Source: a virus. From it: 40,124 bases of DNA. Made by a program: the position numbers and the translations under genes. Where the stretch lies: IMG/VR virus record IMGVR_UViG_3300003323_000929, positions 1 to 40,124 of that record; one strand, given 5' to 3'. Every line of letters starts with the position of its first letter. Within the stretch, counting starts at the first letter, position 1. Of this stretch, positions 23,164 to 26,082 are shown in pieces. The notes under the pieces were generated by a model that saw only the letters and a program-made list of their open reading frames with translations, was not told the origin of the DNA and searched no databases.

Positions 23164-23369
23164 GCTACAAGGGGAGTTTTGAAACCAACGAAGGCGGACT
23201 GATATTGTTTGTTAAGTTCCGTCATGGGAACGGAGAAGTCAGCTCTCAGGTAATTGTTCCGTGGGATCAGTTGAGCCGTAGCCTCAATCCAGCTCGCTAC
23301 ATCGAAACCGTGATTGCCAAGGTCGTTTCCCGCACCATTGCGAGCCTGGAAGATGGGGAGGTCAGCTAA
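23160..23369 (+). CDS. Hypothetical protein, 69 residues
   Basis: Starts MSYKGSFETNEGGLILFVKF. Beta-rich N-terminal part, helical C-terminal part (RYIETVIAKVVSRTIASLED). It sits between the tryptophan-rich protein and the polymerase, joined by ATGA on its 5' side and TAATG on its 3' side. No family recognised. Confidence 0.55.
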   Translation: MSYKGSFETNEGGLILFVKFRHGNGEVSSQVIVPWDQLSRSLNPARYIETVIAKVVSRTIASLEDGEVS

Positions 23370-25060
23370 TGGAAACTTGGAATATGCACATCAAGCCGGA
23401 TGGGGCTCTGCATCCGCGCATTTATGTCTTGACCGAGTTTCCTTCCCCGGAAGAGATTATCCGGAACAAGCCTTTCTGCGGTTCGGTCGGGCATGCATTT
23501 GACAAGTTGCTGAACGAAGCAAACCTACTTCGGTCGGATTGCTATTTCAGCTATGCGTGTCTGAAGGGACTTCCTCCGGACAATAAGAACAAAATTGATG
23601 CGTACTATCCCAAGGCCAAAAAGGATGTACTGCATGGGTTTCACCAGTACCTACATGATCGGTGGGTTCACCCCGAGATTGCTAAGAGCCAGGAGCGAGT
23701 GAAGGAAGAAATTGCCCGGATTAAGCCAGACGTGATTCTGGCCATGGGCAATGCGGCGATGCACTTGCTCACGGGCCAGTGGGGAATTCAGGCATGGCGA
23801 GGAAGTCTTGATTACTATGAAGGCATTCCGGTAATCCCGACCTTTACCATGCAGTATCTTTTCCGGGTATGGGACCAACGCCCGGTCATTTTGAACGACC
23901 TGCTCAAGGTTCGCAAAATTCTCCTTGGAGAAGTTGCAAAAGAGCCCGAGTGGAAATTTACCATTCGCCCGACCTTTGAGCAGGTCGAAGAACGCCTGCT
24001 TTGGCTAATTAACCAGTGCGACAATGCCGACGACTGGTTTGCGGCTGGTGTCGATATTGAAACCCGGGGCGGTCACATCAACTGTATAGGTGTAGCATGG
24101 TCCACAACCGAAGCTATCTGTATACCTCTGATTTCACTGGAAAGACCTGGTGGGTATTTCGAACTAAAGCAGGAGGGTCGGATTGTATACCTCTTGTACA
24201 AGCTCCTCACCCACCCGCGTTTCAAGAATGTGGGCCAGAACTACTCCTACGATGTTCAGTATATTTTCAGGGCATGGCATTTCATACCCGGGAATCTTCA
24301 ACCTGGCGGCGTGGAAGATACCATGCTGATGCAGCATGTTCTCTACCCGGGCATGGAGAAAGGGCTTGGCTTCCTTTCCAGCTTACATTCGGAGCATCAT
24401 GTGTACTGGAAAGACGAAGGAAAGCTTTGGAATCCCAATATGCCCGAGGAAGAGCATTGGGAGTACAATGCGAAGGACTGCTGTCGAACCCTGGGAGTTT
24501 ACTACTCATTGAAGGAAACCCTGGAGAAAGAAGGGTTACTTTCCGTTTATCATAGACAGGCATATCGCTGCTGGCGTTCGGTGCTTATGGCAATGCTTCG
24601 CGGCGTTCGAGTTGATGAAGCCCGACGTCGCCAGATGCAGACTGAACTGTTCCAGAAGATCAATCAGATGCAGGCAAAGATTAATCGACTAGTCGGTCAC
24701 GAACTGAACGTCGATTCCAGCCCGCAGATGAAGCGTCTTTTCTATGAAGACCTCGGCCAGAAAATCATCTATGCCAAAAAGGCGAACGAACAGGGCATCA
24801 AAATGCCCACTGTCGACAGTGATGCTCTCGACACTATCATGGAACGTGAGCCACTGCTCGCACCTCTTTGCTGTGCCATCCAGGAGCTACGTTCCCTCGG
24901 TGTTTTTTACTCCACGTTCGCTTGTGCTAAACTTGACTACGACCGGCGGATGCGTAGTAACTACAACGTAGCCGGAACGGAAACATTTAGACTGGCAAGC
25001 CGGCAGAACCCGTTTGGTTCGGGCATGAATCTGCAGAATATTCCGAAGGGGAATGAGTAA
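23369..25060 (+). CDS. DNA polymerase family A, N-terminal half (UDG-like domain, 3'-5' exonuclease, thumb)
   Basis: 563 residues. Residues about 15-190 align by eye with family 4 uracil-DNA glycosylases (EEIIRNKPFCGSVGHAFDKL, IKPDVILAMGNAAMHLLTGQ, WRGSLDYYEGIPVIPT), but the GEAPG box is TEFPSPEE and the catalytic HP box is lost. Residues about 215-400 are a DEDDy exonuclease: GVDIETRGGHI, VGQNYSYDVQYIF, YNAKDCCRTLGVYY. The thumb and start of the palm follow, with RSNYNVAGTETFRLAS and the NLQNIP element eleven residues from the end. Then it stops. Motifs A, B and C are in the separate gene at 25279. It starts TAATG and is translated in the coupled operon. Confidence 0.85.
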   Translation: METWNMHIKPDGALHPRIYVLTEFPSPEEIIRNKPFCGSVGHAFDKLLNEANLLRSDCYFSYACLKGLPPDNKNKIDAYYPKAKKDVLHGFHQYLHDRWVHPEIAKSQERVKEEIARIKPDVILAMGNAAMHLLTGQWGIQAWRGSLDYYEGIPVIPTFTMQYLFRVWDQRPVILNDLLKVRKILLGEVAKEPEWKFTIRPTFEQVEERLLWLINQCDNADDWFAAGVDIETRGGHINCIGVAWSTTEAICIPLISLERPGGYFELKQEGRIVYLLYKLLTHPRFKNVGQNYSYDVQYIFRAWHFIPGNLQPGGVEDTMLMQHVLYPGMEKGLGFLSSLHSEHHVYWKDEGKLWNPNMPEEEHWEYNAKDCCRTLGVYYSLKETLEKEGLLSVYHRQAYRCWRSVLMAMLRGVRVDEARRRQMQTELFQKINQMQAKINRLVGHELNVDSSPQMKRLFYEDLGQKIIYAKKANEQGIKMPTVDSDALDTIMEREPLLAPLCCAIQELRSLGVFYSTFACAKLDYDRRMRSNYNVAGTETFRLASRQNPFGSGMNLQNIPKGNE

Positions 25061-25278
25061 TGACAAACTCTACATTTTTTCACTACGAAATTGGCACAGC
25101 TTTATTCTATAAAGGTGCCTCAACTCGCGGAGTTAATTTCGGCCTGGTTCAAGCAATCACGGTAACAATTGTGCAAGAATGCGCCACTGTTACTTACAAA
25201 ATAAACGATAGTTGGTTTGTGAAGGTCACCGATGATAAGGAAGTTGCCGAGAGCTGGCTTCTGCAGGAAGGTAACTAA
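25060..25278 (+). CDS. Small protein inserted between the two polymerase halves
   Basis: 72 residues starting MTNSTFFHYEIGTALFYKGA. Beta-rich (LVQAITVTIVQECATVTYKI, WFVKVTDDKEVAESWLL), resembling small SH3-like phage proteins of the 'VYKI...E..VF.S.EEL' type. Its ATG overlaps the stop of the upstream polymerase half (TAATG), and its stop abuts the ATG of the downstream half, so the three are one coupled string. No HNH, GIY-YIG or LAGLIDADG motif is visible. Confidence 0.65.
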   Translation: MTNSTFFHYEIGTALFYKGASTRGVNFGLVQAITVTIVQECATVTYKINDSWFVKVTDDKEVAESWLLQEGN

Positions 25279-26082
25279 ATGAGCAAACTCCTTTCCACCA
25301 TGAAGAAAGCGTACACAGAGCACAAGCTCCCCAACGTACGCAAGATGTTCATTCCTGACCCGGGCAAGATGATCTGCGACTCCGACTTGGATCGCGCCGA
25401 TCTTCAAGTCGTGGTTTGGGAAGCTGAGGACGAAGGACTGAAAAAAGCCCTCCGTGAGGGTCTCGATCTCCACTTATACAATGCCCGTGATGCCTTTGAT
25501 CTCCCCTACACCGATGATGAGATTTACGAAGGAACGGATTCTTGCGAGGAACTTAAGAAGAAATATTACCCGCAACGACAGGACGCGAAAATGGCTTGCC
25601 ATGCTACCAACTATGGAGCAAGCGCCCCCACCATCGCCCGAGTACTTGGTTGCACTGTCAAAGATGCCGAGCGCTTCATTAGCCGCTGGTTTGCTGCCCA
25701 CCCGGGAATTCTAGATTGGCATAAGAGAACTGCCAGGTCACTGGAAGAGCACCATGCAGTTTGGAATCGTTTTGGCTATAGACGATTCTATTCTGAGCGC
25801 TTGGACCGACTTTTGCCAGAAGCACTTGCATGGCAACCGCAGTCCACTGTAGCCTGTGTCATCAACGAGGTTTGGAATATAATCGAGGAAACGGAGTCTG
25901 ATCGAATCGAAGTGCTTATGCAAGTACACGATTCTCTAGTAACTCAGTTTGCAATCGAAGACACCGACTGGGCGGTGGCTCGGATCAAGGAGATTGGCAA
26001 CAGCGTTGTCATTCCCTATGACGATCCTCTGGTCATCCCCCTCGGATGCAAAACATCTAAGATATCCTGGGGCGACGTATGA
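25279..26082 (+). CDS. DNA polymerase family A, C-terminal catalytic half (motifs A, B, C)
   Basis: 267 residues from MSKLLSTMKKAYTEHKLPNV. KMFIPDPGKMICDSDLDRAD holds motif A (catalytic Asp), KYYPQRQDAKMACHATNYGA holds motif B (R, K, Y), and VLMQVHDSLVTQF is motif C, with Ser where most family members have Glu after the catalytic HD. It corresponds exactly to the polymerase sequence that should follow the NLQNIP element of the upstream gene. Both catalytic Asp residues are here, while the thumb and exonuclease are in the other chain, so activity should need both proteins together. No 5'-3' exonuclease domain is present. Confidence 0.88.
   Translation: MSKLLSTMKKAYTEHKLPNVRKMFIPDPGKMICDSDLDRADLQVVVWEAEDEGLKKALREGLDLHLYNARDAFDLPYTDDEIYEGTDSCEELKKKYYPQRQDAKMACHATNYGASAPTIARVLGCTVKDAERFISRWFAAHPGILDWHKRTARSLEEHHAVWNRFGYRRFYSERLDRLLPEALAWQPQSTVACVINEVWNIIEETESDRIEVLMQVHDSLVTQFAIEDTDWAVARIKEIGNSVVIPYDDPLVIPLGCKTSKISWGDV

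What the first reader, a model, noticed from the sequence alone, without database searches (positions are those of the whole stretch)
23369..26082. Family A DNA polymerase split into two coupled genes with a small gene between them
Seen: the first protein ends 11 residues after its NLQNIP element; the second begins just before the motif A region and contains motifs A, B and C. A 72-codon gene fills the gap with a TAATG overlap on one side and direct abutment on the other. Known: in intact polymerases these parts are contiguous. Inference: the enzyme must work as a two-chain complex (thumb/exonuclease plus fingers/palm), or the region is spliced. All three frames look intact and coupled, arguing against simple decay.
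Basis: partly seen in the sequence, partly recalled or inferred. Interest (0 to 1): 0.75.

Follow-up and report, generated by a model that had tools for sequence, protein, structure and literature searches.

The report
Phage DNA polymerase split in two
A phage makes its DNA-copying enzyme as two separate proteins with an unrelated small gene between them, and relatives show that this same loop of the enzyme has been cut open (or rejoined) many times in evolution, so the enzyme most likely works as two pieces that assemble together.

Summary
Window 23369-25060 encodes a 563-aa chain (UDG-like domain, 3'-5' exonuclease, thumb, first palm strands) that ends four residues after NLQNIP. A 72-aa orphan gene follows (25060-25278, TAATG overlap), then a 267-aa chain with motifs A, B and C (25279-26082).

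Intron, intein, frameshift error and decay are all disfavoured. Of 163 loci with both halves, 33 (including the window and a cultured Vibrio phage) are split at this linker: 15 without an inserted gene, 18 with mostly unrelated inserts, from 50 aa up to a ribonucleotide reductase. A careful tree needs 14 split/intact changes, 11 forced. Both chains are under purifying selection like unsplit enzymes, and catalytic residues are kept. No second family A polymerase was found in the split phage records tested, nor a family B one in 12.

Best explanation: a two-chain polymerase that reassembles across a palm loop. The conserved Pro-Lys-Gly codons double as a ribosome-binding site, and once split, the junction accepts passenger genes.

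Split phage polymerases are known (phage 25 gp43, family B; MEP401, family A). New here is the recurrence at one linker. Two-chain activity is inferred, not shown.

The parts
23369..25060 (+). Polymerase N chain, 563 aa: UDG-like domain, 3'-5' exonuclease, thumb and first palm strands; ends NLQNIPKGNE
   Evidence: exonuclease motifs VDIETR, GQNYSYDVQY and YNAKD intact
23399..23881 (+). UDG-superfamily domain (residues 11-171 of the N chain)
   Evidence: PF03167, E 1.5e-12
24017..24523 (+). 3'-5' exonuclease domain (residues 217-385)
   Evidence: PF01612, E 7.7e-9
24629..25048 (+). N-terminal third of the family A polymerase domain (PF00476 columns 5-133)
25028..25045 (+). NLQNIP element, after which all 33 split loci break
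25046..25051 (+). AAGGGG, codons of Lys-Gly that double as a Shine-Dalgarno for the next start
   Evidence: Anti-SD duplex -7.9 kcal/mol
25060..25278 (+). 72-aa probable passenger gene with no detectable relatives; GC 42.6% against 50-51% in the flanking halves
25265..25271 (+). AGGAAGG, Shine-Dalgarno of the C chain inside the end of the small gene
   Evidence: Anti-SD duplex -7.8 kcal/mol; 6.8% of random ATGs reach -7
25279..26082 (+). Polymerase C chain, 267 aa: palm core and fingers with motifs A, B and C
   Evidence: PF00476 columns 139-357, E 4.1e-23; AlphaFold2 model pLDDT 94
25384..25422 (+). Motif A region (DSDLDRADLQVVV; D36 and D41 of the C chain invariant)
25576..25614 (+). Motif B region (RQDAKMACHATNY)
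25921..25935 (+). Motif C (QVHDS)

Best explanation
The phage's only detected replicative DNA polymerase is a family A enzyme made as two chains from one operon. The N chain (UDG-like, exonuclease, thumb, first palm strands) and the C chain (palm core, fingers, both metal-binding aspartates) fold separately and reassemble non-covalently across a surface loop between NLQNIP and the strand before motif A. Both are made by coupled translation of one message. The conserved Pro-Lys-Gly codons before the loop are a natural ribosome-binding site, so one small mutation that creates a stop/start pair is enough to split the gene without losing either half. Once split, the junction is an ordinary gene boundary, and small genes can land there at little cost. 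The 72-aa gene is most likely such a passenger. Shown: the anatomy, recurrence, selection, absence of intron, intein and homing-endonuclease signatures, and absence of another detected family A or B polymerase. Inferred: physical association, activity, the role of the Pro-Lys-Gly codons, and the order split-first, insert-later.
For: 33 of 163 loci are split at the same linker, 15 without any insert and 18 with mostly unrelated inserts. A careful tree needs 14 split/intact changes, 11 forced, 13-15 in bootstraps. Close split relatives differ in the insert: L009/L010, L117/L116, and L002, L153 against L155. Both chains are under purifying selection, pN/pS 0.15-0.35 in split pairs and 0.16-0.28 in intact pairs. 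Motif A and C aspartates are invariant in the split C chains. Split phage records, including a complete cultured Vibrio phage, have only these halves of PF00476, and 12 tested have no family B polymerase. The linker is a loop in a confident AlphaFold2 model (pLDDT 95; NLQNIP 537-542, loop 543-555) of an intact relative that matches Klenow-type structures at Z 33-36. The C chain alone is modelled at pLDDT 94. Window starts carry Shine-Dalgarno duplexes of -7.9 and -7.8 kcal/mol.
Against: No protein or RNA data. The window's nearest relatives are only 46% identical and unsplit, so its own history of splitting is not resolved. Tree counts do not tell fission from fusion: shared C-chain N-termini (HQxLPN, MVAKTxxLPN) in non-sister lineages hint at some shared ancestry, transfer or re-fusion. 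The small ORF is an orphan and its translation is unproven. The Shine-Dalgarno difference between split and intact loci (p 9e-6) is not corrected for relatedness and vanishes among PKG-bearing sequences alone.
Confidence: 0.85

Rival explanations
1. The 72-aa gene is a working third subunit or regulator of the polymerase, and the insertion is selected for co-expression with the two halves.
For: It sits between the halves in a coupled operon with good ribosome-binding sites on both sides. Some other inserts plausibly touch nucleotide metabolism: a ribonucleotide reductase in L173 and a deoxyribosyltransferase-like gene in L072.
Against: Inserts in different split relatives are mostly unrelated, and 15 split loci have none. 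Homologues of two inserts lie beside polymerase genes that they do not interrupt. The window insert has different base composition.
Confidence: 0.1
2. The region is spliced (group I/II intron) or joined by a split intein, so that one continuous polymerase is made.
For: Introns and inteins are common in phage polymerase genes. One relative, L067, does carry an in-frame intein at the Exo III motif.
Against: No Rfam match; no extra RNA structure; no intein domain in either chain, while the same library finds the L067 intein; relatives split with nothing inserted.
Confidence: 0.03
3. A homing endonuclease invaded the gene and split it, and the small gene is its remnant or replacement.
For: This is the established route in T4-like phages (mobE in nrdA, mobA in gene 60, possibly seg in gene 43; PMC2988022). 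NLQNIP is a conserved DNA target.
Against: No homing endonuclease family was found in the inserts scanned; many splits have no insert; the inserts are mostly mutually unrelated.
Confidence: 0.07
4. Dead or decaying polymerase, or an assembly or sequencing error.
For: The sequence is one metagenomic contig; a single frameshift could create the no-insert cases.
Against: A 219-bp coupled gene is not a base error. The same break recurs in a complete cultured Vibrio phage genome. Purifying selection holds on both chains of split relatives and catalytic residues are kept.
Confidence: 0.03

Closest known systems
Split family A DNA polymerase of Methylophilales phages MEP401/MEP402 (Zobellviridae; PMC10580990, OP830906)
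   Same: Family A polymerase in two ORFs with a 77-aa unknown gene between; break lies between NLQN and motif A; the authors found it in most group I relatives.
   Different: The break is one loop further on (after NLQNFDGEIKTLFLSRYGE; C chain starts MILNADAKALEW). Its N chain starts directly with the exonuclease and is only 387 aa. The authors considered an intron; the passages read do not analyse recurrence at one linker.
Split gp43 (43A/43B) of Aeromonas phages 25 and 44RR (family B; PMC2988022)
   Same: Replicative phage polymerase in two chains. The review reports that the phage 25 chains co-purify and are active, and that the insert may have entered an already split gene.
   Different: Family B polymerase; the insert is a seg homing endonuclease or an untranslated spacer.
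[quoted passage not shown]
   Same: Same polymerase family, same linker, one 184-aa gene between.
   Different: About 36-41% identical; insert unrelated. No discussion of the split was found in the held papers.
Split NrdA of phage Aeh1 and T4 topoisomerase gp39/gp60 (PMC2988022)
   Same: Phage enzyme cut into chains that must reassemble.
   Different: Different enzymes; cut by mob homing endonucleases.

Membership tests
Family A DNA polymerase (PF00476) | Profile match over the whole domain | tested here: met
   N chain columns 5-133, C chain columns 139-357, both over cut-off
Family A DNA polymerase (PF00476) | Catalytic aspartates in motifs A and C, and motif B R..K..Y | tested here: met
   D36, H217 and D218 invariant and K104 nearly invariant in C chains
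Family A DNA polymerase (PF00476) | Polymerase activity | not testable with these tools
   Needs protein
Split phage DNA polymerase | Two separately encoded, complementary halves, with no unsplit copy in the record | tested here: met
   the record may not be a complete genome
Split phage DNA polymerase | Chains associate and are active together | not testable with these tools
   Reported for phage 25 gp43 (PMC2988022), not for this family
MEP401-type split | Break at the loop after the strand that follows NLQN | tested here: not met
   Ours breaks one loop earlier
Group I or II intron | Conserved ribozyme structure in the insert | tested here: not met
   No Rfam match at E<=1; fold z -0.7
Split intein | Intein halves at the chain ends | tested here: not met
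   The N chain ends 4 residues after NLQNIP and the C chain starts 16 residues before LPNVRK; no Hint/intein hit against a positive control in L067
Homing endonuclease insertion | HNH, GIY-YIG, LAGLIDADG or related gene in the insert | tested here: not met
   None in the window or in the scanned inserts of relatives

The most novel reading that the evidence does not exclude
This polymerase family is naturally modular: it is cut at several loops (palm linker, exonuclease domain, UDG/exonuclease and exonuclease/thumb linkers), and separate chains give the phage an advantage, such as exchangeable halves, adjustable stoichiometry or binding of inserted partner proteins, rather than merely being tolerated.
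Probability: 0.15. Interest if true: 0.8.

Novelty: new variant of a known kind. Interest (0 to 1): 0.62.

Why it matters
A replicative polymerase that is cut or rejoined repeatedly at one loop is a natural experiment in protein splitting. It names a break point that may work for engineered split family A polymerases, explains why annotators see 'partial' polymerases in phage genomes, and offers a testable rule: a conserved protein motif whose codons happen to be a ribosome-binding site is a hot spot for gene fission. It also shows a core replication gene acting as a landing site for passenger genes, up to a ribonucleotide reductase.

Tried and rejected
No DNA-level relative in 50,697 phage records. 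No relative of the 72-aa gene in viral contigs or phages or in any fetched locus. Close-relative scans with each chain alone gave no confirmed relatives; alignment queries were needed. Intron, intein and homing-endonuclease readings were tested and dropped. Recoding of TGA was considered: N chains end in TGA (17), TAA (12) and TAG (2), and in the six loci checked long ORFs end in TGA and in other stops too. Programmed frameshifting cannot explain cases with inserted genes but is not excluded for the no-insert splits. Overlapping stop/start pairs are enriched at the junction over other long ORF ends (19 of 28 against 107 of 294, p 0.002), but such overlaps are common in phages. A first Rfam call exceeded the size limit.

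Full report
OBSERVATION. The window holds three tightly coupled forward genes at 23369-25060, 25060-25278 and 25279-26082. The outer two are complementary parts of one family A DNA polymerase: Pfam PF00476 is matched over columns 5-133 by the first and 139-357 by the second. The first chain also carries a UDG-superfamily domain and an intact 3'-5' exonuclease. The stop/start pairs are TAATG and TAA|ATG. The flanks are a ParB/N4-N6 methylase fusion upstream and a DUF3987 primase/helicase-like gene downstream. A similar order appears around the unsplit polymerase of Microcystis phage Mel-JY34. The window is a whole 40,124-base IMG/VR record.

RELATIVES. No DNA-level relative exists in the phage collection, but protein searches find the same UDG-exonuclease-polymerase architecture. 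Unsplit versions occur in MW202489 and Mel-JY34. Vibrio phage VS-ABTNL-3 is split at the same position, with a different, 184-aa gene between. Scans of IMG/VR gave 160 loci. Of 158 loci with both halves (counting the window and the phage records), 127 are continuous at this linker and 31 are split. Three of the 31 are near-copies of another (L043, L127, L147). Of five hits in bacterial or archaeal assemblies, two more are split, L172 and L173. In all 33, the N chain ends a few residues after NLQN-, and the C chain starts shortly before the PN-R/K segment that precedes motif A (alignment).

INSERTS. Fifteen of the 33 have no inserted gene; the two genes overlap, abut or are separated by a short gap. 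Eighteen carry one or more genes, including small CxxC proteins, a methyltransferase-like gene (L049), Lon/ChlI-like genes (L151, L172), a Phd-like antitoxin (L172), a deoxyribosyltransferase-like gene (L072), and a 572-aa ribonucleotide reductase (L173, PF02867 1.8e-107). All-against-all comparison shows the inserts are unrelated, except that the Lon-like gene recurs in L151 and L172. Homologues of two inserts lie beside the polymerase gene of relatives whose gene is not interrupted by them (L050; L101, L102, L116). No homing endonuclease family was found. The window's 72-aa protein has no relative anywhere searched, and its gene has lower GC (42.6%) than the flanking halves (50-51%).

EVOLUTION. 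A 127-row tree with the linker columns removed needs 14 changes of split/intact, 10 forced by supported branches. A careful 65-row tree under a mixture model also needs 14, with 11 forced and 13-15 across bootstraps. The count does not give direction. Close pairs show splitting without an insert (L124 beside unsplit L101), and inserts present in one split relative and absent in another (L117/L116, L009/L010, L002/L155). This favours splitting first and insertion later, at least in those clades. The window's nearest relatives (46% identity) are unsplit, so its own order of events is unresolved. Some C-chain N-termini are shared between non-sister split lineages (HQxLPN, MVAKTxxLPN), so part of the pattern may be shared ancestry with re-fusion, or transfer.

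FUNCTION. In close split pairs both chains show pN/pS of 0.15-0.35, much the same as unsplit pairs (0.16-0.28). Motif A and C aspartates and the motif B positions are conserved. In 20 split records PF00476 is found only as these halves, apart from the host's own polymerase I in one bacterial assembly (and two records where only the C half reached the threshold). None of 12 records tested has a family B polymerase. A decayed or redundant polymerase would not look like this.

STRUCTURE. An AlphaFold2 model of unsplit L017 (69-row alignment, pLDDT 95) places NLQNIP at 537-542, the variable linker at 543-555 in a loop of slightly lower confidence (block means 85-90), and the PNIRK segment at 556. 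The fold from residue 188 on matches Klenow-type enzymes at Z 33-36 (Foldseek). The cut therefore runs through the palm domain at a loop, and both chains are needed to build the active site; this last step, and that the loop is at the surface, are inferences from the known structure of family A polymerases. The window's C chain alone is modelled at pLDDT 94.

WHY THIS SPOT. The codons for Lys-Gly after NLQNIP spell AARGGN, a Shine-Dalgarno core, just before the flexible linker. In the window the duplex energies with the 16S tail are -7.9 kcal/mol for the small gene and -7.8 for the C chain. Random ATGs average -2.6, and 6.8% reach -7. At the same codons, split loci average -8.1 and intact loci -5.2; among PKG-bearing sequences there is no difference. 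So the motif is a pre-existing feature rather than an adaptation to splitting. I infer that a single small mutation creating a stop/start pair here leaves a translatable second chain, which would make the site a fission hot spot. This is a hypothesis; the statistics are not corrected for relatedness.

ALTERNATIVES. Intron: no Rfam hit, ordinary RNA folding, splits without inserts. Intein: none in either chain, while L067's Exo III intein is detected. Homing endonuclease: none found. Recoding: not supported.

KNOWN WORK. A two-ORF family A polymerase with a small ORF between is described for phages MEP401/402 (PMC10580990). Reading that sequence shows its break one loop further on. For family B, the split gp43 chains of Aeromonas phage 25 are reported to co-purify and be active (PMC2988022). 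The present case is therefore a new variant of a known kind: a different family A lineage, a different break point, and a degree of recurrence and cargo variety that I did not find described in the held papers.

FURTHER BREAKS. The same polymerases are also broken elsewhere: inside the exonuclease domain (L024/L027, L029, L044, L060, and with two extra genes in Caulobacter phage Kuura), between exonuclease and thumb (L056, L084), at the UDG/exonuclease linker (L137/L138) and inside the UDG domain (L034). This supports the view that the enzyme tolerates being made in pieces; some of the no-insert cases could still be sequencing errors.

Noticed in passing
L024/L027, L029, L044, L060, L005 (matching window N-chain residues about 350-360): A second recurrent break site, inside the exonuclease domain just before the Exo III motif; mostly short gaps with stop/start pairs, and in Caulobacter phage Kuura two extra small genes lie between.
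   Followed up: partly
L067 3601-4420: An in-frame intein of about 255 aa at the Exo III motif (YN|CLTGD...VVVHN|CEDA; PF14890 8e-11) in a polymerase that is also split at the palm linker.
   Followed up: partly
L173 4099-5814: A ribonucleotide reductase gene (572 aa) lies between the two halves of the DNA polymerase in a contig binned as Dokdonella.
   Followed up: partly
L172 4831-5979: Four small genes between the polymerase halves, including a Lon/ChlI-like and a Phd-like antitoxin gene.
   Followed up: partly
L056, L084, L137/L138, L034: Further breaks with inserted DNA between exonuclease and thumb, at the UDG/exonuclease linker and inside the UDG domain.
   Followed up: no
window 23399-23881: The polymerase N chain begins with a UDG-superfamily domain; its role (uracil sensing or structural) is unknown.
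   Followed up: no
C-chain N-termini of L008-L010, L108, L116, L117, L124 and of L049, L072, L080: Short shared N-terminal peptides (HQxLPN; MVAKTxxLPN) in split lineages that are not sisters on the tree.
   Followed up: no
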